Below are positions 300 to 22,733 of a stretch of 64,000 nt of DNA, piece by piece. The position numbers and the translations under genes are program-made. Under the pieces are notes generated by a model. That model had not been told where the DNA came from. It made no database searches and worked only from the letters and a program-made list of their open reading frames with translations. How positions within the stretch are numbered: the first letter of the stretch is position 1; every line of letters starts with the position of its first letter. This DNA comes from a virus. The stretch spans positions 1 to 64,000 of the IMG/VR virus record IMGVR_UViG_3300021602_000003. One strand, written 5' to 3'.

Positions 300-932
300 A
301 TGAAATACTGTCCTAAATGCGGGATAAATCACGATAAGCCCGGCACCTTTTGTTCTAGGTCGTGTGCTAATAGTAAAATATGCTCATCCGAAAATAAATA
401 TAAGAAAAGTATAGCACTGAAGGGGCGCCGATCTACACAAACAATAGAAGTCAGGAAAATTGCTGTAGAGAAACTCCGAAACACACGATTACAAAAATAT
501 TTAAATACACCGTTTAATGAATTGGGGTGTGAAAATCGACGTCGTAGAGTTTTTGAAGAACAAGAACATAAATGTATCAGGTGTGGAATTACCGAATGGT
601 TTGAACATACAATATCATTAGAATTAGAACATAAAGACGGTAATACTGAAAATAATAAAAGAGAAAATTTAGAGGGATTATGTCCTAATTGCCATTCTAT
701 AACAGATACGTGGCGTGGCCGGAATAAGCCTGTTCGTAATGGGATAATTGACACAACAGATGAATTTTTGTTACAATGTTTAAAAGAAACAGATAATATA
801 CGGCAGGGTTTGTTAAAAGCAGGTTTAGCGGCAAAAGGCAATAATTATGCCAGAGCAAAGCTTTTATTAAAACTTGTGCAGGTCATATCAAAACACATTA
901 ATCGGGGATATACTTGGCGTGACTATCCTTAA
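300..932 (+). CDS. HNH homing-type endonuclease with N-terminal zinc finger
   Basis: A 210-residue protein. Residues 4-24 carry a CxxC...C...C zinc finger. Residues 91-130 hold the HNH core: CIRCG, then LELEHKDGN with the metal-binding His, then LCPNCHS. The rest is basic, as expected for DNA binding. HNH proteins of this type cut DNA site-specifically and spread their own gene between phages; stand-alone copies next to tRNA genes are common in T4-like phages. The ATG follows a GATAAATA late box. At least eight further homing-type nucleases occur in the window. Confidence 0.85.
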   Translation: MKYCPKCGINHDKPGTFCSRSCANSKICSSENKYKKSIALKGRRSTQTIEVRKIAVEKLRNTRLQKYLNTPFNELGCENRRRRVFEEQEHKCIRCGITEWFEHTISLELEHKDGNTENNKRENLEGLCPNCHSITDTWRGRNKPVRNGIIDTTDEFLLQCLKETDNIRQGLLKAGLAAKGNNYARAKLLLKLVQVISKHINRGYTWRDYP

Positions 933-1566: not shown

Positions 1567-2469
1567 ATGGTAAGAATGTATCCGACCAACAATATAAATT
1601 TCGATTATTCGTATCAGAATATGCCTAATACAGTAATAGAACAAAGATTCTCCATGAATTTTAGAAAAATTCAACGACCATTAATGTCTTGGAAAGAAGA
1701 AATCATGGATACAACTTTAAATATAAAACGGCTGGCAGGGCGCAGGCCCATTATGCTATGTTTGAGTGGTGGCACCGATTGTGAAATTATGGCAACAGCA
1801 TTCCTGAAAAATAATATAGATTTTTCTGTTGTTAGTTGTAGACACGAAGCCGGAACAAATGACCACGATATGGTATATGCTACGAATTTTTGTAAAAGAA
1901 ATAATGTAAAGCATATTATTTTTGAAATTAATCATCTTGAATTTTTTACGGATGGTATAAATCGATATATTGAACAAGGATATCGATCAACCAGGATATT
2001 TAGGTATTTTCAATTGTTATTGTTGGAAGAAGTAGAATCGCGCGGCGGGTGCGCCGTATTAGGTGGAGGTGACCCGATGTATTTTGGGGTAAACGGCGAT
2101 GTTGTATTAAAATATGCACCAGATTTTAGCCTATGTCTCGATTGGTGCAATAATCACAATTCTTTACATTTTCCATATTTCTATAAACAGAATCCACATA
2201 TATTTGCTTCATATATGAAAGAAGAATTGATAGAGTTTATTATATCACGGCCCGAATATTTTAAAGATGAATGGTTTGTTAGTTTAGAAAAGACACTGAT
2301 GTATACAGCGAATTGGCCCGATATAGAAAGACGGCCAAAATATCACGGATTTGAGAAGATGAGATATATTAAAAACACTGTAGAAAAAAAGTTACGTGAA
2401 AAATTTCCCGATTTAGAATATTTAATTTTTCCGATATCTGTTATAAAAAGTCAGCTAGGAATAACTTGA
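1567..2469 (+). CDS. PP-loop ATP-pyrophosphatase-like protein (first of eight)
   Basis: 300 residues. The ATP-binding PP-loop is SGGTDCE at about residues 67-73, after a hydrophobic strand (PIMLCL). Two further blocks recur in paralogues here: LGGGDPMYFG near 166 and RPKYHGFE near 255. N-type ATP pyrophosphatases adenylate a carboxyl, carbonyl or base oxygen for attack by N or S (AsnB, QueC, TilS, ThiI). The substrate cannot be inferred. It opens a 14-gene block; a late box overlapping a start hairpin precedes it. The closest match by eye is the gene at 5082. Confidence 0.75.
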   Translation: MVRMYPTNNINFDYSYQNMPNTVIEQRFSMNFRKIQRPLMSWKEEIMDTTLNIKRLAGRRPIMLCLSGGTDCEIMATAFLKNNIDFSVVSCRHEAGTNDHDMVYATNFCKRNNVKHIIFEINHLEFFTDGINRYIEQGYRSTRIFRYFQLLLLEEVESRGGCAVLGGGDPMYFGVNGDVVLKYAPDFSLCLDWCNNHNSLHFPYFYKQNPHIFASYMKEELIEFIISRPEYFKDEWFVSLEKTLMYTANWPDIERRPKYHGFEKMRYIKNTVEKKLREKFPDLEYLIFPISVIKSQLGIT

Positions 2470-2509
2470 ATAGATTTTATGATTACATTTTTATAGTGAT
2501 AAATGTTAA

Positions 2510-3280
2510 ATGAATATACACATAATTACAATGCCTCGCTCTGGATCTAAAACTGTGATGCAATATATGACCTTATATTATCGAGAAAAATATAAAAATC
2601 TTTTTGTTTCCACACTAATAAGTACAAAGGATATTATTTGGCAAGGACTGAAGTCTGCGTGGAGTGTAGATGAATTTCTTAATCACCACCATAAAGGGAT
2701 GTTTCAAGGTCATGCTGAAATATTAAATCGATTTGAAATTCTGGTATCAGATAAAAAAATAGATTCGATAGAAAAAGAATTAATATCGAGGCTAGATATT
2801 ATACAAAACTTAACCGAACCATACATCTTAAAACATTTTCCCAGAGGATATACTCATATCACTGATCAGTTAATATCGATACCGGCTAATATTTATTATA
2901 TTACACGCGACGATATATTTAATCATACACTAAGTTGGGCTCTTTCTCAACGACTCGCATCGTGGGTAAACAATAATCATCAGAAAAATATGATTTCTCT
3001 ATCAGAGAATAGTCCGATTACTGTTGATCATATAGCATTCCGCGGGCTATTAAGAGAATTGTTGCATTTTAGTAAGAAATTTAATGATGGCAGGCCTGTT
3101 ATTAGATTCGAAGATATAATTGCACTAAATAACGCCAGGGATTTCTGTACTTTATTTAACTTAGATTTTGTAGATTTTGAATTTGTAAAAATAGGAGAAG
3201 AATTTGGAAACCATAAATTGCAGATGATAGCCAATATAAATGAGCTTCACGATATTTACACCGAAGAAATAGAAGAATGA
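2510..3280 (+). CDS. Sulfotransferase-like protein
   Basis: 256 residues. It begins with a strand and a phosphosulfate-binding-type loop, IITMPRSGSKTVMQY (residues 4-18). Near 130-145, YYITRDDIFNHTLSWAL resembles the second PAPS-contact region of sulfotransferases (R-D...S). These enzymes move sulfate from PAPS to hydroxyls or amines. It overlaps the next gene by 4 bases (ATGA) and lies between a PP-loop gene and a methyltransferase, suggesting a tailoring role. A weak late box (GATAAATG, 2498-2505) precedes the ATG. A different P-loop transferase cannot be excluded. Confidence 0.6.
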   Translation: MNIHIITMPRSGSKTVMQYMTLYYREKYKNLFVSTLISTKDIIWQGLKSAWSVDEFLNHHHKGMFQGHAEILNRFEILVSDKKIDSIEKELISRLDIIQNLTEPYILKHFPRGYTHITDQLISIPANIYYITRDDIFNHTLSWALSQRLASWVNNNHQKNMISLSENSPITVDHIAFRGLLRELLHFSKKFNDGRPVIRFEDIIALNNARDFCTLFNLDFVDFEFVKIGEEFGNHKLQMIANINELHDIYTEEIEE

Positions 3281-4026
3281 GTAATCATATTCATCAATAT
3301 TATCCTGTATTCACATATTTTGCAAATCAGTTAGATCAATCGTCAGAGTGGTGGACTGATAAAAAAGTATTAGATTTTGGTGGAAATTGTGGTAACATCT
3401 TAAGAGATCCGAATTGCACTATTAAGCACGAAAATTATTATTGTTTAGATATATCGTCGGCCGCTATAGAAAAAGGAAGAGAAGATTTTCCAGAAGCACA
3501 TTGGCATCATTATAATCGATTTAATATCGCATATAATTTCGATGGTAATAAAGATGAACCGTTTCCCGTGTTTTCTGAAAAATTTGATATGATTCTAATT
3601 TATTCAGTTTTTACATCTACTTCTAGGTCCGAAATGATAAGATGCATAAACTTAGAATTATTACCGTTATTAGATCACGCCGGGATACTTATCAATACAT
3701 ACCTAAGTTTAAATAATTATGGAGTATTAAAAGGATTCTTAAATAAACGACAAACAAAAAAGGAAGACCAAATTAATATATTAAATAAGATTTATGGAAA
3801 AGAATATTTTTATTTAATAGGGGAAGATATAGTTAGCACAGAGGAAGATTTTATAAATTATAATAATCAAGGATGGGCATTGTCTTTTTATAAAGATGAG
3901 GAAATTTGCAGAATATTTCCTGATTGTGAAATTAAATCGTTTAAATTAAGTACTGACGGCCAAAGAACTAAATTAGTACATCATAGTATGCTAATTTGTG
4001 CCCGGGTCGATAAAATTCAATTTTGA
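3277..4026 (+). CDS. SAM-dependent methyltransferase
   Basis: 249 residues. Motif I is VLDFGGNCGNILRD near residues 30-43. An acidic strand end, YYCLDIS, follows near 55 and would bind the ribose of SAM. FDMILIYSVF near 105-114 fits motif IV/post-I. This is a class I Rossmann methyltransferase; the substrate is unknown. It is coupled to the sulfotransferase-like gene upstream, and its 3' end overlaps the converging QueC-like gene by 36 bases. Confidence 0.75.
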   Translation: MSNHIHQYYPVFTYFANQLDQSSEWWTDKKVLDFGGNCGNILRDPNCTIKHENYYCLDISSAAIEKGREDFPEAHWHHYNRFNIAYNFDGNKDEPFPVFSEKFDMILIYSVFTSTSRSEMIRCINLELLPLLDHAGILINTYLSLNNYGVLKGFLNKRQTKKEDQINILNKIYGKEYFYLIGEDIVSTEEDFINYNNQGWALSFYKDEEICRIFPDCEIKSFKLSTDGQRTKLVHHSMLICARVDKIQF

Positions 4027-4593
4027 AAATGCCCATGCTCGTTCCTTACAGAAGAAGCATTCGTTGCATCGCCCAGCTACTTTCATGCAACATGAATGTG
4101 TAAGTTTAAGCATTTCTTCTATCTTGTATTGATAGTATAAAGAGATAACAAATGCCTTATCATAATTAAAGAATGGATGTTGACGTATATCTGTTCGAAT
4201 AGTATTTTCTCTGGCCGGGTATGTAAAGGTTGTGTCTAATTGTATATCTGGGTTCTTAGTTGTGCCTGTAAGAAGAATATCGGCCTTATATTTAAGCAAA
4301 GCATCTTTCATCCCGGATCCGACAAATTTACTATGATGCACGTCTGCATCACCTACATAAATTACGTCTGGCAATTCTATATTGAAATAACTTTTTAAAT
4401 AATTTAAAACATTAGTTGTATGAGCGATAGTCCCGGTTCGTCGAGATACAGAATAAGGGACAATTTTACAGTTTTTATTTTCTTCTATATTTTGTTTATG
4501 TATTAAATAAAGGAGTATAGAACTATCTGCACCACCGGAAAACATTACACCCAGATGTTTATCATGATAGGAATCTATTATATTCATATTCAT
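3991..4593 (-). CDS. QueC/ExsB-like PP-loop protein with zinc-binding C terminus
   Basis: 200 residues on the minus strand, ending in TAG. The PP-loop is FSGGADSS near residue 18. The C terminus reads CCMKVAGRCNECFFCKERAW, matching the C...C-x2-C-x2-C-x2-R zinc site of QueC. QueC makes 7-cyano-7-deazaguanine (preQ0), a precursor of queuosine and of phage 7-deazaguanine DNA modifications. The other preQ0 genes (folE, queD, queE) are not in this window. It is the only minus-strand gene of the block and the only PP-loop member here with the cysteine cluster. Two in-frame ATGs (4593, 4587) are possible starts; a minus-strand TATAAATA overlaps the first. Confidence 0.7.
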   Translation of the reverse strand: MNMNIIDSYHDKHLGVMFSGGADSSILLYLIHKQNIEENKNCKIVPYSVSRRTGTIAHTTNVLNYLKSYFNIELPDVIYVGDADVHHSKFVGSGMKDALLKYKADILLTGTTKNPDIQLDTTFTYPARENTIRTDIRQHPFFNYDKAFVISLYYQYKIEEMLKLTHSCCMKVAGRCNECFFCKERAWAFSKLNFIDPGTN

Positions 4594-4619
4594 ATTTATA
4601 TAATACCGATTGATATCAT

Positions 4620-4627
4620 GATAAATA
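4620..4627 (+). promoter_or_regulatory. Late promoter box GATAAATA
   Basis: Lies 8 bases before the ATG at 4636, so a late transcript would have almost no leader. It favours 4636 over upstream in-frame ATGs that would overlap the divergent gene. Confidence 0.5.
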
Positions 4628-4635
4628 CCTGTACA

Positions 4636-5085
4636 ATGCAGAATATTGAAGAAATTAATTTTAAAACTATATTAGATATATGGAAAAACGAATTATGGCC
4701 CGGCAGAACATCACCTATAGAAACGCATAGTGCTATGTTATATCTTCGTAATCATGATATGAATAATTTTTCATTACCAAATTGGTACTATGGATGTTAT
4801 ATAGATAACAAACTAATAGGAGTCAATAGTGGACATCTCTGTGTTAATAACAATGTTAGATCAAGAGGCCTCTGGGTTTGCCCGGAATATCGTAAAAAAG
4901 GCTACGGAAAACAGTTATTATCGGCGACTATAGACAAGGCAAAAACACTTAATGCTTCTTTTGTTTGGAGTTACCCCCGAAAGTCATCCTGGGTGACTTA
5001 CAAATCTGTCGGATTCGAATTAACGACTGAATGGCAGAAAAGCGAAACAAGCGATGCGAATTGTTATTGTATACTAGATCTATGA
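4636..5085 (+). CDS. GNAT-family N-acetyltransferase
   Basis: About 149 residues from ATG 4636; an in-frame ATG at 4618 lies before the late box. The acetyl-CoA signature is WVCPEYRKKGYGKQLLSA, with the R-x-x-G-Y-G pyrophosphate loop, followed by a helix, then WVTYKSVGFE, the usual beta5-alpha4 end of GNATs. It acylates an amine on an unknown partner. It overlaps the next PP-loop gene by 4 bases, so the two are likely co-translated. Confidence 0.8.
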   Translation: MQNIEEINFKTILDIWKNELWPGRTSPIETHSAMLYLRNHDMNNFSLPNWYYGCYIDNKLIGVNSGHLCVNNNVRSRGLWVCPEYRKKGYGKQLLSATIDKAKTLNASFVWSYPRKSSWVTYKSVGFELTTEWQKSETSDANCYCILDL

Positions 5086-6002
5086 ATATTTACACATCAG
5101 AAGATAATTGGTATAAATGGCGCTATAGTAATGGTCCACTGTTTGGCAGAAGAGAAAGAAATTTTAATTCATTGTTCGAGACGGAATATACCAAATATTA
5201 CGGTCAGGTAGGCACCTTTAAAGAAGAATTACAGAAGGCAGCAAGAAGCACGCTAGATCATTTTCCTGGATTACGACCTTCTATATTATTCAGCGGAGGT
5301 ATGGATAGCGAGGTTCTTCTAAGATCCTTTATTGATATTGGGGCAAATCCTGCCGTGTATGTTTTTAGATACGAAGATAATATAAATTATGAAGATGTGT
5401 TAATGGCAGAAACTGTATGTAGAAATTTGAAAATAAATTATAATATTATTGATTTTAAATTACAAAAATTCTTAGAGAATGAAGTAGAGAAGATATCAGA
5501 AGAGTCCGAAATAGATTATCCTACAGCTTTGACACATATGAAATTTTTTGAATTAGTCGATGGTTTGCCGATATTAGGTGGCGGCGACCAATGTTGGATA
5601 AGGAATAATAGCGATTACACTACTAGGGGTATATGGTCCGGGGTGTGCAACGAATTTGAGATAGGCTGGTCGAAATATATTCGACTACACAATTTACAGG
5701 CAGTAGCAGAATGGTATAAATGGAGTCCTGGATTAATAATATCATATTTAAGATTAAAATGGTTTAACGATTTAATCGATGATAAAATTTATGGTAAACT
5801 AGGTGTAAATTCGACCAAATATATCGGATATCAAACTGTGTATCCTGATATTATTGTGAGAAAGAAATTAACCGGATTTGAAACAATCCAGGATTTAGTT
5901 ATAGAGATTGAGGCAACACTTAAGGATAAATATTCCACCTTACCTTATCGAAATACATATAATAGAACTATAGATCGGGTATCCGAAGAGTTAATAGGGT
6001 AA
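5082..6002 (+). CDS. PP-loop ATP-pyrophosphatase-like protein
   Basis: 306 residues. PP-loop SGGMDSE near 71; PILGGGDQCW near 164; RKKLTGFE near 259. The N-terminal W-x-K-W and GTFKEELQKAAR resemble the 10459 paralogue (GTFREECVRAAK). The ATG is placed inside the GNAT stop (ATGA) rather than at upstream GTG codons in the GNAT gene. It is followed 4 bases later by the radical SAM gene. Confidence 0.75.
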   Translation: MNIYTSEDNWYKWRYSNGPLFGRRERNFNSLFETEYTKYYGQVGTFKEELQKAARSTLDHFPGLRPSILFSGGMDSEVLLRSFIDIGANPAVYVFRYEDNINYEDVLMAETVCRNLKINYNIIDFKLQKFLENEVEKISEESEIDYPTALTHMKFFELVDGLPILGGGDQCWIRNNSDYTTRGIWSGVCNEFEIGWSKYIRLHNLQAVAEWYKWSPGLIISYLRLKWFNDLIDDKIYGKLGVNSTKYIGYQTVYPDIIVRKKLTGFETIQDLVIEIEATLKDKYSTLPYRNTYNRTIDRVSEELIG

Positions 6003-6006
6003 CTAA

Positions 6007-7584
6007 ATGACAGTTGACATTTTATTATTTACAGATAATACACATATACTATTTGTGAGACCTGCCGGTGCATACGCAGTTGCTACGACATTACGAGCTG
6101 CCGGTTATAGCGTTCAGGTAGTAGATCATTTTTTATTACTGGGCGTGGAAAAAACACTGGCAATAATAGATAAATTTGTAGGGCCAAATACTTTATTTGT
6201 TGGATTCGGTACCACATTTATGAATCCAACATACAGGCACCTTAAAGAGGCCGAAGTTAATAATCAAATATTTACTTACGATGGCTATTGGACTACAACT
6301 TCAAATAGGAATATTTATGTTGACACCATAGCCTATAGAGTACCAATAAGCGATCCAGAGATGGATGCCATTAAAAATAGAATTACATCTATAAATTCGA
6401 AGACAAAATTAGTAATCGGCGGATCTAAAGCAAATGACTTAAGACAGTCGCAAATGGATGTGTTTATTATCGGTTATGCTGAGCAGAGTGTTGTAGATTT
6501 CGCAAAGTATCTTCAGGGAAAAAATCCGTTTTTTCATTATAGAACCACACAAGCTGGTCAGATGATTGTTGATCACGATATTGATGCAAAAAATTATAAT
6601 TTTTCAGAATCGGGTATAAGGTTTTCTTCAACAGACTTAATTGACAGTACAGAACTCTTACCGTTGGAGGTTGCTCGCGGCTGCATATTTAAGTGTAAAT
6701 TTTGTTCGTTTCGACTCATCGGGAAGAAAAAGAATGATTACACAAAAACATTTGAGGCATTATATAGTGAGTTAATGTATAATTATGATAATTTTGGAGT
6801 AACAAGATACACATTTGTTGACGATACATTAAATGAATCTATTTACAAACTTGACCATATATTAAGGGTGGTAAAAAAGTTGCCATTTAAACTAGAAATT
6901 GCATCATACATAAGACACGATTTAATACATACCTATCCCGAGATGGCCGATATGTTATCTGAAATTGGATTAAAAGCGGCATGCTTTGGTATTGAATCTT
7001 TAAATCATGAGACAGGAAAGCTTATTGGTAAGGGGTTGCATCCAGAAAAAACCAAAGAATTATTAACTTGGTTACGTAATGAAAAAAAATGGAAGAATAA
7101 TATTCTTATGTATTCGGGTTTTATAATAGGTTTACCTAAGGATACAGTAAATACGGTTACAACCTGGACAGAAGAAATATCGGACCCTAGTTATCCGCTA
7201 GATTCTGTCTATATTATTCCATTAATGATGATTAGTGATTCTACTCGTTTAAAAAAATCAGAATTTGAGCTTAATTATGAGAAATATGGATACACGTACG
7301 AGACAGGTTCGACTGTTAGGTGGAAAAATAAAGACTGGACTTATGATAGTGCAACTGCCTTTGCAAAGAAATATACGCTCCGCAATTGGGAATCGAAACG
7401 AAATACTGTTACCTCATTTGCTTCTGTGGCATTAAGAAGTTATGGATATTCCTGGGAACAAATTTTTGCCATGCGTGAAAAGGATTATAATTGGCACAAT
7501 ATATTTCAGACGAACATTATTCGAACAAATACATATTATGATAACTTAATAGGAAATCAGAATGGGCCTGTTAGTAACATTTGA
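6007..7584 (+). CDS. Radical SAM enzyme, B12-binding-type architecture
   Basis: 525 residues. The N-terminal 170 residues look like a Rossmann B12-binding-type domain (LLFTDNTHILFVRPAGAYAV), but I see no clear DxHxxG cobalamin motif. The radical SAM cluster is CIFKCKFC near residue 226 (CxxxCxxC), preceded by LEVARG as is usual in this class. VDDTLNES and GIESLNHETGKLI fit the later barrel motifs. Such enzymes do methylation, methylthiolation or C-C chemistry. It overlaps the next PP-loop gene by 23 bases. It is the only radical SAM gene seen in the block. Confidence 0.8.
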   Translation: MTVDILLFTDNTHILFVRPAGAYAVATTLRAAGYSVQVVDHFLLLGVEKTLAIIDKFVGPNTLFVGFGTTFMNPTYRHLKEAEVNNQIFTYDGYWTTTSNRNIYVDTIAYRVPISDPEMDAIKNRITSINSKTKLVIGGSKANDLRQSQMDVFIIGYAEQSVVDFAKYLQGKNPFFHYRTTQAGQMIVDHDIDAKNYNFSESGIRFSSTDLIDSTELLPLEVARGCIFKCKFCSFRLIGKKKNDYTKTFEALYSELMYNYDNFGVTRYTFVDDTLNESIYKLDHILRVVKKLPFKLEIASYIRHDLIHTYPEMADMLSEIGLKAACFGIESLNHETGKLIGKGLHPEKTKELLTWLRNEKKWKNNILMYSGFIIGLPKDTVNTVTTWTEEISDPSYPLDSVYIIPLMMISDSTRLKKSEFELNYEKYGYTYETGSTVRWKNKDWTYDSATAFAKKYTLRNWESKRNTVTSFASVALRSYGYSWEQIFAMREKDYNWHNIFQTNIIRTNTYYDNLIGNQNGPVSNI

Positions 7585-8398
7585 CCCGTTTAGGGTGATA
7601 TACCCCGAGATTACTTCTGCTATTAAGGATTTTAAATCTGAGTGTATTTTAGCAGTCAACAAGATCGCAGATAAGAATACAGATAAATTACCCTACGCCA
7701 TAATGGTTAGTGGTGGAATAGATAGCGAATTAGTTGCAGAATCATTTTTATTAGCAGGTGAACATTTTATTTGTGCCATAGGTAGATTAATGACCTCGAT
7801 TAATGGCCATCGAATCGAGTTTAACCAGGATGATTATCGATATGCAGTAGATTGGTGTATTCGAAATAATGTTGAGATAATATTTGTAGATATTGATATA
7901 TTTAAATATAATGATTTAATATGTAAGTATACATTAGATTCTGCGGGATTTTCCCCGCAGTATGGCTGTCATATGTTTGTTATGAAACAATTGAGTGATA
8001 TGGGTTATTTTTTTGTTGCTGGGAACGGTGAAATGGATTTTGTATTAAGAAATAACAAATATTTTATGCTCGACGAACAACGAGAATTTACATTGTTAAA
8101 TTTTTGTAAGAATAATAATTTATGCGGTGAATTTCAATTCTGGAAGCAAGATAGCAGATTAAGTGCTTCTTTTCTACAATTGCCTACAGTAAAAAAGTTA
8201 ATGGAACGGAAAGTTACGAATATACTAGATTTCAAACACGTTTGTTTCGCCGATGTCTTTAAATCTGCTGCCAGAGTAAAACATACTGGTTTTGAATCAA
8301 TTCAGCAATGGGACTATATACATAGAAATTATTTAAAGACAATAAACGGGCAGTTTGATGAGAAATTTTATACACCGGCGGAGAAATTTATATTATGA
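7562..8398 (+). CDS. PP-loop ATP-pyrophosphatase-like protein
   Basis: 278 residues. PP-loop SGGIDSELVAES near residue 49; AGNGEMDFVL near 153 in place of the GGGD block; RVKHTGFESIQQW near 238. Slightly shorter at the N terminus than its paralogues. Start ATG 7562 lies within the end of the radical SAM gene; its own stop overlaps the Bug-like gene (ATGA). Confidence 0.73.
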   Translation: MGLLVTFDPFRVIYPEITSAIKDFKSECILAVNKIADKNTDKLPYAIMVSGGIDSELVAESFLLAGEHFICAIGRLMTSINGHRIEFNQDDYRYAVDWCIRNNVEIIFVDIDIFKYNDLICKYTLDSAGFSPQYGCHMFVMKQLSDMGYFFVAGNGEMDFVLRNNKYFMLDEQREFTLLNFCKNNNLCGEFQFWKQDSRLSASFLQLPTVKKLMERKVTNILDFKHVCFADVFKSAARVKHTGFESIQQWDYIHRNYLKTINGQFDEKFYTPAEKFIL

Positions 8399-9288
8399 GA
8401 CTGTTAAGTATTTTGATAATAGTATTAGCTTCGACGGTTGCTAACGCAGGCACAATAAATACCGAACTAGCAAAATTACCTAGAGAATTTAATGTGTATT
8501 CGTCGCAGTCTTCGGGTACCAAAGATACTGTTTGCAGGTCAATTCTGGACATATATTCCAAAAAATTTAATGCAATTCCGGTAATTATTGTTAAAAAGGG
8601 CGCAGGCGGAACAATTGCAATGGAAGAGATGCTGAAGGATAAGAAATTCTCAGTTTTATGTTCTGGACCATCAGAGAGTATATACAATATCACGGTATTT
8701 CCGGGGCACGAAAAAGAATATAAAATGTTAACCATGGTAATAATATTGGCTATCGGGCCAACAACAATTTACACAAAGACTGATGGTAAGTTTAATTCAA
8801 TCAATGATCTCCAGAAAAAGTCGTTTATAACCGTAGGGTTTAATGCTCAGGGGCCGAGATCGATAGCAGAAATAATATTTCAGAATAAAGATGTTGTCTG
8901 GGTACCATTTATAAACTCGGTTGATTCGTTATCGTCGTTAATGGATGGTTCTCTGGATGTGTATATTGATAGTGGTAGCTTAGAAGAAATGGCAAGAGCC
9001 AATAAGATTAAAAGTTTAGGACATTTTGGTGGGACACCCGACCTATTAGGGAGCGATCTGGGATTCGATTTCCCGCAAGCAGCAAAGTTGCCAGCATTCG
9101 TTGCCTTGACTACATCTATAAATAATTCTTTAGATGATATAGAGCAACTAAATGTTGAATTAAGAAGCATTATTAATTCAGCAGAATATGCAATAGCTAT
9201 TGCGAAAATAGGATGGGTACCGGTAAGTTTCACAGTTAAGAACTCTAACGAATTGGCAGAACAATTCAAATCTTTGTTAAAAAAATAA
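8395..9288 (+). CDS. Bug/TctC-like periplasmic solute-binding protein, copy 1
   Basis: 297 residues with a clear signal peptide (MRLLSILIIVLASTVANA, cut near residue 19). The body matches the Bug receptor pattern: a mature N terminus with the ligand loop, GAGGTIAMEEML near 70, then SLMDGSLDVYID. Bug proteins bind small carboxylates in the periplasm and are greatly expanded in Burkholderiales. A phage copy without transporter membrane genes is unusual. The next PP-loop gene starts 1 base after its stop. Copy 2 is at 12905; 35 bases (8614-8648) are identical between them. Confidence 0.75.
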   Translation: MRLLSILIIVLASTVANAGTINTELAKLPREFNVYSSQSSGTKDTVCRSILDIYSKKFNAIPVIIVKKGAGGTIAMEEMLKDKKFSVLCSGPSESIYNITVFPGHEKEYKMLTMVIILAIGPTTIYTKTDGKFNSINDLQKKSFITVGFNAQGPRSIAEIIFQNKDVVWVPFINSVDSLSSLMDGSLDVYIDSGSLEEMARANKIKSLGHFGGTPDLLGSDLGFDFPQAAKLPAFVALTTSINNSLDDIEQLNVELRSIINSAEYAIAIAKIGWVPVSFTVKNSNELAEQFKSLLKK

Positions 9289-9289
9289 A

Positions 9290-10462
9290 ATGTCGCATCA
9301 CTATAAACTCGGATTCTACAACGTCGGGGATAGAACTTTTCTAAATAAGGCCGATGCGTTAATAGAAGCAACCCGCCTCAATACTTCTGTATATTGGAAT
9401 TTTAATGATTCTGTATTCTCCTCTATAGACTGGAGTATACCGATAACAACCGGATTAAATGAACTCTATAGGAAAAGGGCATTGCAACTTAGGGAAAAAT
9501 ATGATTTTATTTCTCTATATTATAGTGGCGGAGTAGATAGCACAAATGTATTACACTCTTTTATTAATAATGGAATATTATTAGATGAAGTAGTAATGTA
9601 TCGCCCCAGAATTTTAGAATCAGAATCTAATTCACTTGATAGAACAAATAAGAATATATTTTCGGAAATAGAATTTGCAGCAATACCTTACCTACAAAAA
9701 GTGCTAAAGGATAGTCGCACTAAGATTAGAATTATTTATATTGATGAATCTATAAACGATTATCTTTCGGATGATAAATTGGTAGACGAGTTTCAAACTA
9801 TTAATTTGTTTATGCCTACCGGGGTCGGCCGATTATCAATGAATCTAACAGACTCGACATGGAATAATTTATTATCTAATGGCAAGAAGCTATGTCATTT
9901 ACACGGGATAGATAAACCTATACCCAAATTAGTAAATGGAAGATATACATTTCAATTTCATGATACTGCTGTAACTCCTGCAGTTAATATTCCTAAATAT
10001 AATTCGGCACGTTCGGAAATGATGGACCATCAATATCATGAGTTATTCTATTGGACACCAGACCTACCACAAATGGTAATTAAGCAGTGTCAGGTGGTTA
10101 AAGATATTAACACAGACGGATCTTTAAATTCGCTGTTCGAAAACTCAGATAGATGGAAACAAGATAAATTTACCTTCATACATAAATTTATCTATCCGGC
10201 ACAGGTTAATGCTGTTCGAGATCTATTTGTCACTGAAAAACCGGGACCCGATATTTATTCGGGACAGGGTTCTTGGTTCTACGATAAAATGAATGAATAT
10301 TCAAAGGGAGTATTTAGCGATATTATTAAGAACATGCAAGATAATATAGATACTAGATTCTTTCGTGGTTTTAATAATACTAATTATTATCTGGAAGACC
10401 CCGATACAGGTAGCCCAAAAACGGGATTAAGAGCTATTAAAAGTAAGGCACATATACTATGA
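9290..10462 (+). CDS. Long PP-loop protein (asparagine-synthase-like), copy 1
   Basis: 390 residues. PP-loop YYSGGVDSTNVLHSF near 76-90, then DEVVMYRPRI. It lacks the GGGD and RPKxxGFE blocks of the shorter paralogues and has its own features: HLHGIDKP near 204 and FYWTPDLPQMVIKQCQ near 262. The basic end (RAIKSKAHIL) is unexplained. The nearest relative is the 404-residue gene at 13789, and both directly follow a Bug-like gene. A synthetase or amidotransferase role is plausible; there is no N-terminal glutaminase Cys. Confidence 0.72.
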   Translation: MSHHYKLGFYNVGDRTFLNKADALIEATRLNTSVYWNFNDSVFSSIDWSIPITTGLNELYRKRALQLREKYDFISLYYSGGVDSTNVLHSFINNGILLDEVVMYRPRILESESNSLDRTNKNIFSEIEFAAIPYLQKVLKDSRTKIRIIYIDESINDYLSDDKLVDEFQTINLFMPTGVGRLSMNLTDSTWNNLLSNGKKLCHLHGIDKPIPKLVNGRYTFQFHDTAVTPAVNIPKYNSARSEMMDHQYHELFYWTPDLPQMVIKQCQVVKDINTDGSLNSLFENSDRWKQDKFTFIHKFIYPAQVNAVRDLFVTEKPGPDIYSGQGSWFYDKMNEYSKGVFSDIIKNMQDNIDTRFFRGFNNTNYYLEDPDTGSPKTGLRAIKSKAHIL

Positions 10463-11412
10463 AAATTGATTATACTCACAATAATTTCTTTAGGTGTGGT
10501 TGGGGGGATAAAAACACATTTAATTTTAAAAATAAAAAAGATTTAGACTATTGGGTCACGTATGACTGTGCCAAACAGATGCCGGGTACCTTTAGGGAAG
10601 AATGTGTGCGTGCTGCAAAACTAATAGGCAAACAATCGAAAAAACCGATATTAATATTCTTTTCAGGCGGAATCGATTCCGAGATAACAGTAAGATCATT
10701 TATGGATGCAAATGTAGATTTTACAGTTTGCATTGTCAATTTGTATTATGATAATATCTTATCTAATACACATGATACTAATTTTGCATTTTCTTTTGTT
10801 AAGCAGCATAATCTGTCTGTGAAAGAGATTGATTATAATTTCAGCAATTTCATGAATGAAAGATATATTGATGGTGTATATACATACCAGACGTGGTTAC
10901 CTGGATCGATAATGCATGCCGAATTAGTTAGTATGTTGTGCAAAGATTATCTATGCGTGTTCGGCCTCGGCGATATCCTGCTAAAACGGGCAAGACATAA
11001 TGGGTATCCCGATGTGGATGGTATCTCTGTTATATCGGACCCTAAATCAGTTACTGCTATTCATGCGGGAGCTCTGATGGCTGAGCCGGTAATTGCTGAA
11101 TTTCTTGCTTATACACCTGAACAGATGTTGTCGTGGATGTTACATCCCGATATTCAAACTTTTATTAAGTATGAGAGAGCATTTCCTATACTAGACATAT
11201 ATAACTTAAAACCATTTATCTATTTTAAGATGTGGCCGGATATGGCAGTAAGGCCAAAATATTCTGGATTAGAAGGCATACATCGTCTTTCAAAAAAAGA
11301 AATTTGGATGAACGACCCTGTTTTTAAAGAAGGTATGAATATAACTTCACAAATGAATGTGAAAGTTCACATCTCGAGCTCAGAATTAATTTCGATGCTA
11401 TTACCGAGGTAG
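10459..11412 (+). CDS. PP-loop ATP-pyrophosphatase-like protein
   Basis: 317 residues. PP-loop FFSGGIDSEITVRSF near 66-80; CVFGLGDILLKRA near 165; MAVRPKYSGLEGI near 262. Overlaps the gene before by 4 bases (ATGA). It ends in TAG (11410-11412), and the next gene's ATG is in frame three bases later, so amber read-through would fuse two PP-loop proteins. The window encodes a CTA-anticodon tRNA. Confidence 0.75.
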   Translation: MKIDYTHNNFFRCGWGDKNTFNFKNKKDLDYWVTYDCAKQMPGTFREECVRAAKLIGKQSKKPILIFFSGGIDSEITVRSFMDANVDFTVCIVNLYYDNILSNTHDTNFAFSFVKQHNLSVKEIDYNFSNFMNERYIDGVYTYQTWLPGSIMHAELVSMLCKDYLCVFGLGDILLKRARHNGYPDVDGISVISDPKSVTAIHAGALMAEPVIAEFLAYTPEQMLSWMLHPDIQTFIKYERAFPILDIYNLKPFIYFKMWPDMAVRPKYSGLEGIHRLSKKEIWMNDPVFKEGMNITSQMNVKVHISSSELISMLLPR

Positions 11413-11415
11413 ATT

Positions 11416-12360
11416 ATGTCTGTATATAATAATTATTTTCAGTGTTACTATAATAAAGATCCCACGCAGATTCTTAGAAAGAGTGTTGACGATAAATGGG
11501 GATTACATTTTAACATTACAGGAAATTGTAAAATAAAGTCGTTTAAAGAGGAGGTATTGAATTCTTGTGAACTGATGTATGACGCATTCAAAATATATAC
11601 ACCTAAATTGAATTTATTTTTTAGTGGTGGTATGGACTCTGAATGTATGCTTAGATGCTTCACTGAACTCAAGATACCGGTAAATCCTGTTATTATCATT
11701 CACTGTGGAGAAGAATCAGCACCTGAAGCGCAGCAGGCATTACGTATCTGTAAGGAATTATCATTAGTACCGACAATTATAAATATTGACCTATCCAAGC
11801 TTTTCGGCGCCGGGGTATGCCACGATATTGGAGAAAAATATAGAACTAAAGAGCTGGCAATGGTTGAATTACTATATGTAATGGAAAAATTACAAGAGCC
11901 TTCGATACTATGTGATGATGTTCAACTCTTTTATCATAGTTCTTCTAAGAATAAACTTTCTAAGAGCGAAACCAATTATCAACAATGGTTTTATTCTATA
12001 AGAGAAGATCACGACGCTGTGTTTGATCGGTTCGAATATATTACAGGTATTCCTGTATTTGCTGATACATATAAGTTTACCAAGGAGTCATGGGCTGCAA
12101 TGCTTATGACCCCTGTTATTCAAGATATAGTCTTGAATAAAAGAGGAAAAGCAAGTGGAAAATCATCTAAGAATAAAATGATGTCAGCAGAATTCGATAC
12201 GGAATGGAGAGAAAAGACCGCAGTCTTTTCATCTGGGAATATTCTTCGCATCACACGGACATTACATAAAGATTTGGGAGAATTGATACCTGTTAGTAAT
12301 ACCCATACTATTGAGTATTTCAAATTATTATCTTTATTGGGAGCATATGATTCAGTATAA
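11416..12360 (+). CDS. PP-loop ATP-pyrophosphatase-like protein, divergent
   Basis: 314 residues. PP-loop FFSGGMDSECMLRCF near 67-81, then PVIIIHCGEESAPEA. The acid-rich block SILCDDVQLF near 157 replaces the GGGD loop, and the C-terminal RPKxxGFE motif is not seen, so it may have a different substrate or be a non-catalytic partner. SFKEEVLNS resembles the N-terminal region of the 5082 and 10459 proteins. Its end overlaps the next gene by 14 bases. Confidence 0.72.
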   Translation: MSVYNNYFQCYYNKDPTQILRKSVDDKWGLHFNITGNCKIKSFKEEVLNSCELMYDAFKIYTPKLNLFFSGGMDSECMLRCFTELKIPVNPVIIIHCGEESAPEAQQALRICKELSLVPTIINIDLSKLFGAGVCHDIGEKYRTKELAMVELLYVMEKLQEPSILCDDVQLFYHSSSKNKLSKSETNYQQWFYSIREDHDAVFDRFEYITGIPVFADTYKFTKESWAAMLMTPVIQDIVLNKRGKASGKSSKNKMMSAEFDTEWREKTAVFSSGNILRITRTLHKDLGELIPVSNTHTIEYFKLLSLLGAYDSV

Positions 12361-12895
12361 ACTATTGTCACAGGAAGACAGGCCGGCATTTAATGAGTTA
12401 ATGAAAATTAAGAGATCATCCCGGCATCCGATTTATGAAATGCCTAATAATCTTCAATTAGAAAATTATTATTTCGATGATACGGAAGATTCTCATAAGA
12501 TATTTGCTGCTATAATCGATGGTAATTTATGTTCTTGTGTATTTTCTGTATTTTCGATGCAATCGAGAACATGGGAAATAAGTCATATAATGGGCGATTC
12601 CCTAAACAGTCTTTTAAGCACTGTTAATTTCGTAATATCTTTCGCTGAATCGATAAACTATTATAGATGGAATGCTGCTTATTTTGGAAGACAAGATTTA
12701 GTGTGTGAGCGAATAATGAGATATAAAGTACCACTGTTCAGAAGATATAATGTTGGAGTTGAAGAAATAATTCCTGCTTTTAAAAAATCGTCATTCGGAA
12801 ACTATTGGAGCAGCTTTCAAAATTTTAAAATTACTTCGTCATCAAAGATAATTAAGGAGTATTCTTTAATTGATTGTTATAGAGATTTCAACTAG
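12347..12895 (+). CDS. Hypothetical protein, possibly GNAT-like
   Basis: About 182 residues from ATG 12347. Alternating strands and helices (FAAIIDGNLCSCVFSVFSM; WEISHIMG) recall a GNAT fold, but no R-x-x-G-x-G/A acetyl-CoA loop is visible, so this is uncertain. It ends in TAG, in frame with the next gene's ATG nine bases on. It sits between a PP-loop gene and Bug copy 2, in a position parallel to the 7562 gene before Bug copy 1. Confidence 0.55.
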   Translation: MIQYKLLSQEDRPAFNELMKIKRSSRHPIYEMPNNLQLENYYFDDTEDSHKIFAAIIDGNLCSCVFSVFSMQSRTWEISHIMGDSLNSLLSTVNFVISFAESINYYRWNAAYFGRQDLVCERIMRYKVPLFRRYNVGVEEIIPAFKKSSFGNYWSSFQNFKITSSSKIIKEYSLIDCYRDFN

Positions 12896-12904
12896 GAGAA
12901 TTTA

Positions 12905-13792
12905 ATGATTTTAAGAAATATATTGTTATGTGTGTTGGTATTGTTTGCCCCGTATTGCCGGGCATCCTTACCGAACGAATTTTTTGTTTATACGCCACAT
13001 GCTGGTGGTAAAGATGCTGTGTGCAGGGTAATATTTAAGTTATATGCTGAAAAATATTTAGCAAATCCTGTATTTATAACTAAACAAGGTGCATCTGGAT
13101 TAATTGCAATGGAAGAGATGCTGAAGGATAAGAAATTTTCTGTTCTTTGTTCAGGAAACTCGGAGAGTATGTTTAATAATGAACAATATCCGGGGCACGA
13201 GGAATCACACAAATTATTAATGTTGGTATCAACTACAGCTCAGGTAACAACCGGTTTTTACACAGGGGTTAATAATCCTGCAAACGATATAAGAGAGTTA
13301 TTAAAAACATCGAAGCTAATAAAGGTGGGGTATCATACAAATGGTACTAAGTTCATAGCCCAGGTAGCATTTAATGATTATCCGATATTGTGGGTACCCT
13401 ATAAGACACCTGGGGACTCTCTGCCATCGTTAATAGACGGCTCGCTCGATTTATATACCGACGGTGGTTCTTTGGATATATTAGTTAAAGGCGGGAAAAT
13501 AAAAAGTATAGGACATATAAATGGTGCCGATAGTACATCCGGTCCTGATGTGACTAAAGATTTCCCCGACGCGGCAAAAATTAAGAGTATTCTTGCAATT
13601 TCGACTTCTTTATTAAACAACATGGAAGACATTGAGGAATTGAATCAACGGCTCAAGCCCTTAATCTATCATCCCGACGTTGTGAAGATCTTATCTGATT
13701 ATGCTGGTATATCTTATTGGCTATCTGTGAAAGATTCGAATGATCTTATTACCTATATGAGAAGCAAATATAAATTGCTTGGTAACAGATGA
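12905..13792 (+). CDS. Bug/TctC-like periplasmic solute-binding protein, copy 2
   Basis: 295 residues. Signal peptide ILLCVLVLFAPYCRA (cut near residue 20). Domain features match copy 1: FVYTPHAGGKDAVCRVIF, GASGLIAMEEMLKDKKFSV, SLIDGSLDLYTDGG. A good ribosome-binding site (AGGAG, 12895-12899) precedes it. It overlaps the following PP-loop gene by 4 bases, repeating the order seen for copy 1, so the pair is a duplicated module. Confidence 0.75.
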   Translation: MILRNILLCVLVLFAPYCRASLPNEFFVYTPHAGGKDAVCRVIFKLYAEKYLANPVFITKQGASGLIAMEEMLKDKKFSVLCSGNSESMFNNEQYPGHEESHKLLMLVSTTAQVTTGFYTGVNNPANDIRELLKTSKLIKVGYHTNGTKFIAQVAFNDYPILWVPYKTPGDSLPSLIDGSLDLYTDGGSLDILVKGGKIKSIGHINGADSTSGPDVTKDFPDAAKIKSILAISTSLLNNMEDIEELNQRLKPLIYHPDVVKILSDYAGISYWLSVKDSNDLITYMRSKYKLLGNR

Positions 13793-15003
13793 CAATATTA
13801 TCTTTAACAAAACACAAGAGATTGGGGCATTATAGGGCGGGCAGCAAAATATTTTTTAATAAAATTGATGCAGTATATTATGCCACTGAACAACTGAAGG
13901 AAGGGAACGATCATTCCGTCTACTGGGAATTTAATAAGGATATCTTTTCTAAATTTGACTGGAAAGATCCGATTAAACAATCGTTGTCCGAGTTATATTA
14001 CTGCCGAGCAAAACAATTACGTGACAAATATGATTATTTGTCCCTATTTTATAGTGGCGGCGTAGATAGTACGAATATACTTCGTGCATTTGTTGATAAT
14101 GGTATTTTTTTAGATGAAATTGTAATGTATAGGCCCGTGGTTTTAGAACCTTCATTTAATAAGGAAAGCACAAAGACAGATAATGTTTATTCAGAAATTA
14201 AGTTTGCTGCGATACCGTATGCTGAAAAATATGCTGATAAGAGAACAAGTATTAGGGTATTAGATATGTGTGACCCGGTTGAAAAATTTCTAACTAACGA
14301 GGAATTAATAAAGCAATATTGGGGAATTAATAAATGGTTCTCACCAAATTCTATAGCAAAGACAGCAATAGGTATTTTTGATCCTCACTGGTATTCTTTA
14401 TATGAATCTGGAAAAACAGTGGGACATATTCATGGTGCAGAAAAACCTAATATGGAAATAACGGATAATGACGAATATTATTTTCACTTCTATGATTGGC
14501 TCTCTCATGTGGTTTCCCCGTCATTTGATACAGATAGGTCATTAATAATAGAAAATCATCAATTTATTGAACCATTTTATTGGACACCGGATGTGCCCGA
14601 ATTAGTCATCAAGCAGTGTCAAACAATTAAAGAATCGTGCCGAGACCCGGCAGTTAAACAGGTATTTAAAACACACCAAAAGTTTGATGCCGGCGCCAAT
14701 CGACGTAAATTTACAAATTCGGCCCTATATTCGCCAGATATATTAGCAGTAAGAGAAATGTTCAATGCTGAAAAGCACGGTCTCGGGTTACATGCACCAC
14801 AAATGGACTGGTTCTATAAGTACATGTCTAAACCAGTTCTTGATAGATTCTGGTGTATTGTCACTGACATACGAAGAGAGGTTGACGGAAGATTTTTCAT
14901 GACAACCCTGCCATCGGGGCCCATATTAGTAATGAACACGGGCGACGCCCCGACAAAAAAATGGATGTTTCGACATGCTACGTCAGACCCTTATTTTCTG
15001 TAG
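13789..15003 (+). CDS. Long PP-loop protein (asparagine-synthase-like), copy 2
   Basis: 404 residues. PP-loop FYSGGVDSTNILRAF near 87-101 and DEIVMYRPVVLEP; HIHGAEKP and FYWTPDVPELVIKQCQ match the 9290 protein. Ends in TAG with an 18-codon extension possible before TAA. It closes the PP-loop block; the spanin genes follow behind a late box. Confidence 0.72.
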   Translation: MTILSLTKHKRLGHYRAGSKIFFNKIDAVYYATEQLKEGNDHSVYWEFNKDIFSKFDWKDPIKQSLSELYYCRAKQLRDKYDYLSLFYSGGVDSTNILRAFVDNGIFLDEIVMYRPVVLEPSFNKESTKTDNVYSEIKFAAIPYAEKYADKRTSIRVLDMCDPVEKFLTNEELIKQYWGINKWFSPNSIAKTAIGIFDPHWYSLYESGKTVGHIHGAEKPNMEITDNDEYYFHFYDWLSHVVSPSFDTDRSLIIENHQFIEPFYWTPDVPELVIKQCQTIKESCRDPAVKQVFKTHQKFDAGANRRKFTNSALYSPDILAVREMFNAEKHGLGLHAPQMDWFYKYMSKPVLDRFWCIVTDIRREVDGRFFMTTLPSGPILVMNTGDAPTKKWMFRHATSDPYFL

Positions 15004-15068: not shown

Positions 15069-15494
15069 ATGGGCGTTATCGCAATATTATTAAAAAATAG
15101 AAGCTTAGTTGGTTTGGGGGTTTTGCTATTAGCACTTGCTGGTACAGGCATATACATAAAAGTGTTAAAAGGTGAAGTATCGACTTTAACTGCTGAAAAG
15201 AATACGCTTATTGCTGAAAAGAATACGCTTAAAATGGAACTTGTCCTCTCGCAGGATTCTGTAAAAAAATTGCAATTAGCAGTTGACGAGCAAAATACAG
15301 CAATTAAGAAACTTAAAGATGATGCAGATGCTAGATTAGTAGCACATCAAGTCGAAATTAAGAAAGCAAAAGATAAAGCAGCATCTTATAAGAAGTTAGC
15401 AGACGAACTAATGAACCTAGTTCCGGCGCCCGGCAAGCCTATATGTGATGAAGCAAATGCTTTAATCAATAAGGAGATCAACAGTGAAAAATAG
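15069..15494 (+). CDS. Inner-membrane spanin (Rz-like)
   Basis: 141 residues: one N-terminal membrane segment (about 8-30, LVGLGVLLLALAGTGIYI), then a long periplasmic coiled coil rich in Lys, Glu and Ala. This is the layout of i-spanins, which join the outer-membrane spanin to fuse the two membranes at the last step of lysis. A 7-residue repeat (AEKNTLI/AEKNTLK) at about 42-55 comes from a 21-base tandem repeat. It overlaps the lipoprotein gene by 11 bases, as in other Rz/Rz1 pairs. Stop is TAG. Confidence 0.8.
   Translation: MGVIAILLKNRSLVGLGVLLLALAGTGIYIKVLKGEVSTLTAEKNTLIAEKNTLKMELVLSQDSVKKLQLAVDEQNTAIKKLKDDADARLVAHQVEIKKAKDKAASYKKLADELMNLVPAPGKPICDEANALINKEINSEK
15190..15231 (+). repeat. 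21-base tandem repeat in the i-spanin gene
   Basis: Two copies of a 21-base unit centred on GCTGAAAAGAATACGCTT. It adds one heptad (seven residues) to the coiled coil, so copy-number change would lengthen the rod without breaking frame. Confidence 0.85.
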
Positions 15495-15756
15495 TATTAT
15501 ATTAGTAGTAATTTTGCTATCTGGATGTGCTTGCGTGCCACCGGAGCCTGTAATAAAAATTGAAATACAACGAGTTGAAGTTCCTATCGCAGTTCCATGT
15601 AAAGCAGTTACACCTACAAAACCCGATTTTAATTTTGATAAACTAACCGTCGAACAAAATGTATTTGATAAAACAAAAGCACTATTGGCAGACAGAAAAT
15701 TGCATCTGGGCTATGAAGGTGAATTATTGACTGCGCTAAATTCTTGTGTAAAATAA
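15484..15756 (+). CDS. Outer-membrane spanin lipoprotein (Rz1-like)
   Basis: 90 residues from GTG 15484. The signal peptide ends in a lipobox, LLSGC (Cys near residue 15), then proline-rich VPPEP, typical of Rz1-type lipoproteins. It is longer than lambda Rz1. Overlap with the coiled-coil gene upstream supports the pairing. No holin or endolysin gene is seen next to it. Confidence 0.8.
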   Translation: MKNSIILVVILLSGCACVPPEPVIKIEIQRVEVPIAVPCKAVTPTKPDFNFDKLTVEQNVFDKTKALLADRKLHLGYEGELLTALNSCVK

Positions 15757-17136: not shown

Positions 17137-17211
17137 GATAGAAATTGTTGTAATCCCCTTGGAGAAAAGGCAAGCAAGACGCGGGTTCGAATCCCGCATA
17201 TTTGATAAATA
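17137..17211 (+). ncRNA. Leader with a tRNA-type T-arm and a late box
   Basis: Between the promoter and the GIY-YIG start lies a perfect T-arm, GCGGG-TTCGAAT-CCCGC (17181-17197). A 7-bp acceptor can be drawn using TAAATAT upstream, but no D-arm or anticodon arm fits. It looks like a tRNA remnant or a regulatory hairpin. GATAAATA (17204-17211) follows directly. Confidence 0.4.
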
Positions 17212-17216
17212 AGAGT

Positions 17217-17890: not shown

Positions 17891-17891
17891 C

Positions 17892-18262: not shown

Positions 18263-18271
18263 ACCAATCAA

Positions 18272-18297: not shown

Positions 18298-18311
18298 ATA
18301 ATACAAAATTG

Positions 18312-22714: not shown

Positions 22715-22733
22715 GGCACATACGCGGTATTAT

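What the first reader, a model, noticed from the sequence alone, without database searches (positions are those of the whole stretch)
1567..15003. Phage block with eight PP-loop ATP-pyrophosphatase paralogues, radical SAM, tailoring enzymes and secreted receptors
Fourteen tightly coupled genes hold eight SGGxDS/E proteins (1567, 3991 minus, 5082, 7562, 9290, 10459, 11416, 13789), a radical SAM enzyme, a methyltransferase, a sulfotransferase-like protein, a GNAT, a possible second GNAT and two Bug-like secreted proteins. Four of the short PP-loop proteins share a late R-x-K-x-x-G-(F/L)-E motif, and most have a G-x-G-(D/E) loop, so they look like one expanded family. I know of no described phage pathway with this make-up. 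Possible outcomes are a modified nucleotide or DNA base (one member is QueC-like), a small molecule, or a modified cell-surface group. The expansion of one activation chemistry with several transfer enzymes suggests stepwise assembly or several related substrates.
Basis: partly seen in the sequence, partly recalled or inferred. Interest (0 to 1): 0.92.

Follow-up and report, generated by a model that had tools for sequence, protein, structure and literature searches.

The report
Phage cluster of asparagine-synthetase-like ligases
A large, uncultured tailed phage carries a tight block of metabolic genes built around seven ATP-using, probably bond-forming enzymes of two families with no described relatives, and pieces of the same kit recur in dozens of other phages and on the chromosomes of predatory-type bacteria, so it looks like an undescribed biosynthetic pathway (probably for an acylated or amide-linked small molecule) whose product is not yet known.

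Summary
In detail: eight intact SGGxD(S/C) PP-loop genes, a radical SAM, a methyltransferase, GNAT-type genes and two Bug proteins lie in 1567-15003 (15 genes, not 14). The eight PP-loop proteins are three things. PP1, 3, 4, 6, 7 are family A; PP5, PP8 are family B; A and B are remotely homologous, and their AlphaFold models are nearest to asparagine, beta-lactam and carbapenam synthetases, without a glutaminase domain. PP2 is a separate, divergent QueC; the same phage encodes FolE, QueD and QueE. Family A has about 105 members in 82 IMG/VR loci, family B 45 in 30. They recur with a cobalamin radical SAM enzyme, an acyl desaturase, 2OG oxygenases, GNAT-like proteins and, in seven loci, an acyl carrier protein. 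Family A also sits on Bdellovibrionota-type chromosomes (24 of 369 genomes), significantly co-located with the same radical SAM and desaturase families; one such cluster has a homologous carrier protein. The window's paralogues are old, distinct lines under purifying selection. Best reading: a phage branch of an undescribed acyl/amide small-molecule pathway in which A and B are stand-alone carboxylate-activating ligases. Product, substrates and the role of the Bug proteins are inferred, not shown.

The parts
1567..2469 (+). PP1, family A PP-loop ligase-like protein (300 aa)
   Evidence: SGGTDC + RPKYHGFE; family A profile (E 3.6e-77)
2510..3280 (+). Sulfotransferase-like P-loop protein, unassigned (256 aa)
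   Evidence: N-terminal MPRSGSK motif only; no Pfam, PHROG or PDB match
3277..4026 (+). SAM methyltransferase
   Evidence: Pfam Methyltransf_12 1.6e-8
3991..4593 (-). PP2, divergent QueC-like protein with four-Cys motif (200 aa), the only minus-strand gene of the block
   Evidence: Pfam QueC 1.3e-6 over cut-off; phrog_1550 3.5e-10; recurs in other A loci
4636..5085 (+). GNAT acetyltransferase (listed ORF starts at 4555; homologues start near 4636)
   Evidence: Pfam Acetyltransf_1 3e-10; same family beside family A in a Bdellovibrio MAG
5082..6002 (+). PP3, family A (306 aa)
   Evidence: AlphaFold pLDDT 95.4; Foldseek beta-lactam/asparagine synthetase
6007..7584 (+). Cobalamin-type radical SAM enzyme, CxxxCxxC intact
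   Evidence: Pfam Radical_SAM 2.9e-14; family profile matches TokK 4.3e-26; motif
7562..8398 (+). PP4, family A (278 aa)
8395..9288 (+). Bug/TctC-type secreted substrate-binding protein 1
   Evidence: Family profile to TctC/Bug structures; N-terminal hydrophobic stretch
9290..10462 (+). PP5, family B (390 aa)
   Evidence: AlphaFold pLDDT 89; Foldseek carbapenam/asparagine synthetase
10459..11412 (+). PP6, family A (317 aa)
11416..12360 (+). PP7, family A (314 aa), paired with the next gene as in L072
12347..12895 (+). GN2, probable GNAT-like protein of the c2 family (listed ORF starts at 12311)
   Evidence: A homologue follows a family A gene on the same strand in 29 of 78 unique cases; alignment
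12905..13792 (+). Bug/TctC-type secreted protein 2
13789..15003 (+). PP8, family B (404 aa), 39% identical to PP5

Best explanation
The block is a phage-borne branch of an undescribed small-molecule pathway. Families A and B are stand-alone PP-loop enzymes related in fold to the synthetase half of asparagine, beta-lactam and carbapenam synthetases. Most likely each uses ATP to adenylate a carboxylate and joins it to an amine (amide bond), several distinct substrates or steps being served by the old, distinct paralogues; GNAT-type proteins acylate, and the cobalamin radical SAM enzyme, methyltransferase and sulfotransferase-like protein tailor the product. In many relatives the core is GNAT-like / acyl carrier protein / family A / GNAT-like / acyl desaturase, so the product class is probably an acylated (lipo-) amino or amide compound. 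Each family B gene works with a secreted Bug protein, which I infer captures a carboxylate outside for uptake by the host's transporter, to be used by B. PP2 is a separate QueC for 7-deazaguanine. Shown: gene content, families, fold similarity, intact motifs, recurrent linkage in phages and bacteria, purifying selection. Inferred: amide chemistry, the acyl product, the Bug role and the benefit to the phage.
For: Intact ATP motif in 35 of 38 A and 29 of 30 B family rows. Confident models nearest to beta-lactam synthetase 1.8e-6 / AsnB (A) and carbapenam synthetase 4.4e-5 / AsnB (B); A-B homology over 205 columns, E 9.5e-12. Recurrence with desaturase in 42, GNAT-like c2 in 35, radical SAM in 23 and B in 21 of 77 A loci (families). 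Carrier protein beside A in seven phage loci and in a bacterial cluster, keeping the D-S-L serine. Bacterial copies: 24 of 369 genomes; radical SAM presence Fisher p 1.6e-8; radical SAM 4 of 15 and desaturase 8 of 41 within 10 kb of A against 0.17 and 0.49 expected. dN/dS 0.02-0.31 for the PP-loops. B next to Bug in 19 of 33 cases, 18 on the same strand.
Against: No member has a known product. The window itself has no carrier protein or desaturase, though the record is incomplete. TM-scores to known synthetases are low (0.3-0.46) and no curated family claims A or B. Reading the GNAT-like c5 and c2 as acyltransferases is weak. B-Bug pairs also occur without A in small phages between tail-fibre and lysis genes, so B-Bug may be a separate function.
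Confidence: 0.47

Rival explanations
1. The block makes a hypermodified nucleobase: PP-loop enzymes act on 7-deazaguanine or another base that ends in phage DNA.
For: PP2 is QueC-like; the record holds FolE 3.5e-62, QueD 6e-41 and QueE 2.9e-49 and a 534-aa protein with a DSGGFQ motif; phages with this set carry deazaguanines in DNA (PMC6884629).
Against: The Que genes lie roughly 87-150 kb away; A and B lack the zinc Cys motif and fail the QueC equivalog cut-off (25.4 against 150.3 bits); their partners are carrier protein, desaturase and Bug; none of the phage or bacterial neighbour families read near A in bacteria was a Que gene. The DSGGFQ protein matched no TGT/DpdA family.
Confidence: 0.14
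2. A and B modify proteins (tail fibres or a host protein), as QueC-family Cap9 and QatC are held to do, or cyclise a peptide as AsnB-like lasso cyclases do.
For: Cap9 is among the solved sequences matched by A; QueC-family proteins catalyse or are proposed to catalyse protein conjugation (PMC13279940, PMC13329287); B-Bug lies between tail-fibre and holin/lysis genes in L012 and L015, and L010 has the kit among tail-fibre genes; several 2OG hydroxylase-like genes recur.
Against: No conserved small precursor peptide was found beside the genes; the small conserved ORF beside A is a carrier protein; the bacterial cluster genes read include no tail-fibre genes.
Confidence: 0.14
3. The product is a modified cell envelope lipid or glycan of the infected cell that alters surface or membrane, for example to exclude other phages.
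For: Acyl desaturase and carrier protein in relatives; glycosyltransferases near the Bdellovibrio MAG copy; methyltransferase-glycosyltransferase gene at 15784 just downstream; secreted Bug proteins.
Against: No membrane-bound transferase or flippase in the block; the envelope link is by proximity only.
Confidence: 0.15
4. Unlinked cargo: separately acquired genes pooled in a variable region.
For: Gene order and content vary widely among phages; B-Bug occurs without A.
Against: The same families are linked on bacterial chromosomes far beyond chance; the order c5-A-c2-desaturase repeats in many phages; B and Bug distances agree, Mantel r 0.70, though shared ancestry contributes.
Confidence: 0.08

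Closest known systems
Asparagine synthetase / beta-lactam synthetase / carbapenam synthetase (PF00733 synthetase domain)
   Same: PP-loop SGGxDS, best structural matches for both A and B; the GxG(D/E) loop and late Lys motif may match their catalytic loops (from memory, not verified by residue).
   Different: No glutaminase domain; below the PF00733 cut-off; only about 108 (A) or 47 (B) columns align by profile; TM 0.3-0.46.
QueC family (PF06508), including Cap9 and QatC
   Same: PP2 has the PP-loop and a four-Cys site; A matches weakly over the PP-loop.
   Different: A and B lack the zinc site; equivalog cut-off failed; neighbours differ from CBASS or Qat.
TokK / CysS-type cobalamin radical SAM methyltransferases
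   Same: Family profile of the 6007 protein matches TokK 4.3e-26 and CysS 6.7e-20; CxxxCxxC present.
   Different: Substrate unknown; no other carbapenem gene was identified. The B12 domain is below its Pfam cut-off in the window protein (22 against 32.1 bits).
Bug/TctC substrate-binding proteins
   Same: Family profile hits many TctC/Bug structures.
   Different: No TctA/TctB transporter gene was recognised in the block; paired with a PP-loop gene, for which I know no precedent.
Phage auxiliary metabolic clusters (e.g. cyanophage desaturases, phage 7-deazaguanine sets)
   Same: Host-like metabolic genes in phages.
   Different: This gene set matches none described that I could find (no papers).

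Membership tests
Asparagine synthase PF00733 | Score over the Pfam gathering cut-off (21 bits) | tested here: not met
   PP1 16.2, PP2 14.9, others no hit
Asparagine synthase PF00733 | Synthetase-domain fold and SGGxDS | tested here: inconclusive
   Motif met; Foldseek best hits but TM 0.3-0.46
Glutamine-dependent asparagine synthetase | N-terminal glutaminase domain | tested here: not met
   A is ~305 aa with the P-loop near residue 70; in B it is near residue 80
QueC (PP2) | PF06508 over cut-off | tested here: met
   28.5 against 22 bits
QueC (PP2) | Zinc motif C(x)8CxxCxxC | tested here: inconclusive
   PP2 has C-x7-CxxCxxC by reading the sequence; motif definition from PMC13329287
QueC (families A and B) | NCBIfam TIGR00364 equivalog cut-off / zinc motif | tested here: not met
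   PP3 25.4 against 150.3 bits; no conserved Cys columns
Bug/TctC | Homology to TctC/Bug solved proteins | tested here: met
   Profile A5 to 7ndr E 5.4e-65; the single window proteins are below Pfam cut-offs
Cobalamin radical SAM methyltransferase | CxxxCxxC and radical SAM domain | tested here: met
Cobalamin radical SAM methyltransferase | B12-binding domain | tested here: inconclusive
   PF02310 22 bits, cut-off 32.1; TokK match from column 51 on
Anti-phage defence (Qat, CBASS) | PADLOC system components | tested here: not met
   Only QueC and PDC-M51A single-gene hits
Phage 7-deazaguanine DNA modification (for the phage, not the block) | FolE, QueD, QueE, QueC, DpdA | tested here: inconclusive
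   FolE, QueD, QueE met; QueC candidate PP2; DpdA only a DSGGFQ motif

The most novel reading that the evidence does not exclude
Families A and B found a class of carrier-protein-linked, glutaminase-free amide ligases shared between tailed phages (jumbo and T4-like) and predatory-type bacteria, making a metabolite class not yet known; phages carry diversified versions, with exported Bug proteins feeding substrates to the ligases.
Probability: 0.35. Interest if true: 0.92.

Novelty: categorically new. Interest (0 to 1): 0.75.

Why it matters
If right, this is an unrecognised biosynthetic pathway spread through uncultured T4-like and jumbo phages, with a bacterial counterpart that makes it testable in cultivable relatives. 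It would add two enzyme families absent from Pfam, PHROGs and NCBIfam as families, show phages encoding dedicated acyl carrier proteins with ligases and desaturases, and open the question of why a virus makes a specialised metabolite during infection.

Tried and rejected
(1) tblastn of PP3, PP5, the radical SAM and two distant A members against 50,697 isolated phage records: no match, while the tail sheath did match, so the tool works. (2) Family B in 84,980 bacterial/archaeal genomes by pattern plus tblastn: none; a pattern search with limited sensitivity. (3) Family A in 399 genomes of the Dyella genome's phylum at E 1e-20: none. (4) Defence system reading: PADLOC gave only single-gene hits. 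(5) Precursor peptide/RiPP reading: the conserved small ORF proved to be a carrier protein. (6) Residue-level match of the late R-x-K-x-x-G motif to the catalytic Lys of beta-lactam/asparagine synthetase: profile alignment did not reach that region, so it stays a lead from memory. (7) FeeM-like N-acyl amino acid synthase reading of c5 and of the GNAT-like genes in L140: profile comparison gave no support. (8) Paper searches for the gene combination gave nothing relevant; only open-licence papers are held.
Full report
What was checked. The window is bases 1-64000 of a 166,256-base IMG/VR virus record. The eight PP-loop proteins carry intact SGGxD(S/C) motifs and are the only ones among 148 ORFs of 150 aa or more in the record. 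The block is 15 genes; 14 are on the plus strand, several with short overlaps, and PP2 alone is on the minus strand. It is directly followed by two genes that read like inner and outer spanins (15069-15494, 15484-15756; my reading of the sequence). The tail sheath is about 50% identical to that of PA5oct-like Pseudomonas phages and about 46% to Agrobacterium phage Atu_ph07, so this is a jumbo-type myovirus fragment.

Three groups, not one. All-against-all comparison splits the eight into family A (PP1, PP3, PP4, PP6, PP7), family B (PP5, PP8, 39% identical) and PP2 alone. Profile-profile comparison shows A and B to be homologous over 205 columns (E 9.5e-12). Neither is a curated family: in single scans the A members give mostly sub-threshold hits spread over QueC, NadE, MnmA, asparagine synthase and LarE (PP3 just passes the PF06508 cut-off), and B gives nothing in Pfam, PHROGs or PDB sequence searches beyond noise.

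Fold. AlphaFold models are confident (A: mean pLDDT 95.4; B: 89.0). Foldseek places both nearest to beta-lactam synthetase, asparagine synthetase B and carbapenam synthetase, independently for A and B. TM-scores of 0.3-0.46 mean a shared core rather than membership. This makes ATP-dependent adenylation of a carboxylate the most economical chemistry; transfer to an amine is inferred from those relatives. The R-x-K-x-x-G-(F/L)-E and GxG(D/E) motifs may be the catalytic loops of those enzymes, but that comparison is from memory and the profile alignment did not cover it.

Who else has it. Patterns from A and B found 78 and 8 loci in IMG/VR; clustering the genes of the fetched DNA gives 105 A genes in 82 loci and 45 B genes in 30. 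Clustering all neighbours shows a recurrent kit: cobalamin-type radical SAM, SPASM and other radical SAM, fatty acid desaturase (57 genes in 43 loci), aspartyl/asparaginyl-hydroxylase-like and other 2OG-type oxygenases, TauD, Rieske, nitronate monooxygenase, GNAT-like c2 and c5, Bug proteins, and a 73-82 aa acyl carrier protein. In many phages the order is c5 - (carrier protein) - A - c2 - desaturase. GN2 of the window belongs with c2 by iterated profile, and PP7-GN2 is the same pair as in L072. Of 33 unique B genes with both neighbours visible, 19 touch a Bug gene, 18 on the same strand. In a marine group (L071-L093) a single A gene sits between two genes that I read as T4 gp47- and gp46-like.

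Bacterial counterpart. A second genome scan found one strong cellular hit, a Bdellovibrio MAG with two tandem A genes, an Asp/Asn-hydroxylase-like gene and a GNAT of the same family as the window's. Over 369 genomes of that phylum, 24 have A at E 1e-20 or better, up to six copies, some on contigs of 2.7 and 3.3 Mb. The radical SAM family is in 15 of the 369, nine of them A-positive (Fisher p 1.6e-8). Within the 24, 4 of 15 radical SAM and 8 of 41 desaturase genes lie within 10 kb of an A gene, against 0.17 and 0.49 expected. Locus L144 has A, desaturases, a c2 GNAT-like gene, radical SAM and a carrier protein homologous to the phage one. Co-location in bacteria and in phages is hard to explain by phage gene pooling. 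Kinship among genomes is not corrected for in these tests. I did not test systematically for prophage at each bacterial site; several are on contigs of hundreds of kilobases and the flanking ORFs read were mostly metabolic. No A was found in 399 genomes of the phylum of a Dyella strain.

Are the paralogues redundant? The tree puts PP1, PP3, PP6 and PP7 each with members from other phages (PP1-L052, PP3-L017/L018/L019, PP6-L018/L019, PP7-L072), not with each other; PP4 is a long, unplaced branch. They are old, distinct lines kept together, as expected of different substrates or steps. Against the near relative L009, dN/dS is 0.02-0.31 for the PP-loops, 0.16 for the radical SAM and 0.54 for GN2, from few changes.

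PP2 and deazaguanine. PP2 passes the QueC Pfam cut-off and keeps a four-Cys motif. The same record encodes FolE (101846-102529), QueD (103160-103636) and QueE (152647-153546), no other QueC, and a protein with a DSGGFQ motif at 144343-145947 that matched no TGT/DpdA family. PP2 is therefore the likely QueC of a 7-deazaguanine set like those in PMC6884629, and perhaps only incidentally in this block; though QueC-like genes do recur in a few other A loci, which I cannot explain.

Mechanism and its limits. Shown: intact motifs, families, fold neighbourhood, conserved linkage in two kinds of genome, selection. Inferred: that A and B form amides from adenylated carboxylates; that the acyl chain on the carrier protein is a substrate; that the radical SAM enzyme (nearest solved relative TokK) methylates the product; that Bug proteins bring in a carboxylate for B. 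The nearest solved relatives of both the PP-loops and the radical SAM come partly from carbapenem pathways; this is suggestive but no other carbapenem gene was identified and I do not claim a beta-lactam. The window phage has no carrier protein or desaturase of these families in the 166 kb, so it may use the host's, or these may lie in the missing part, or its branch may not need them. B-Bug pairs without A in small phages (L012, L015), between tail-fibre and holin/lysis genes, leave open that B-Bug is a separate function and that the products act at the surface or late in infection.

Verdict. I rate it categorically new at the level of the pathway, since no library family or paper I could search describes A, B or the set, while the enzymes belong to known superfamilies; a description in a journal not held here cannot be excluded.

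Noticed in passing
record 101846-102529, 103160-103636, 144343-145947, 152647-153546 (L003, L006): FolE, QueD, QueE and a DSGGFQ-motif protein: a probable 7-deazaguanine DNA-modification set in the same phage.
   Followed up: partly
window 18382-19374 and 29607-30551: Two more secreted solute-binding proteins, PstS-like (PBP_like_2 1.7e-37) and NMT1/TAXI-like (9.5e-12): with the two Bug proteins the phage carries four such receptors.
   Followed up: partly
window 17871-18315: A tmRNA gene with an unusually long predicted tag (ATAYTNESFVALDMSAFADSDMAVEMVA) in a phage.
   Followed up: no
window 23325-23398; G001 3100-4674: A tRNA with a CTA (amber) anticodon, reported as tRNA-Pyl; the near relative's radical SAM match runs over one TAG near its end. 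Possible amber suppression.
   Followed up: no
window 15784-17097: A methyltransferase-glycosyltransferase fusion just downstream of the block, after two spanin-like genes.
   Followed up: no
L071-L093: In a marine phage group a single family A gene sits between gp47-like and gp46-like genes, far from most of the kit; its role there may differ.
   Followed up: partly
L143, L145, L146: In three Bdellovibrionota-type genomes a family A gene lies beside a 709-825 aa protein that contains a second A domain (fusion).
   Followed up: no
L011-L016: B-Bug pairs without family A in small phages, next to tail-fibre-like (some collagen-like) and lysis genes.
   Followed up: partly
window 300-932, 17202-17861, 20097-20660, 22686-23360 and others: Many HNH and GIY-YIG homing-endonuclease-like ORFs through the window.
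   Followed up: no
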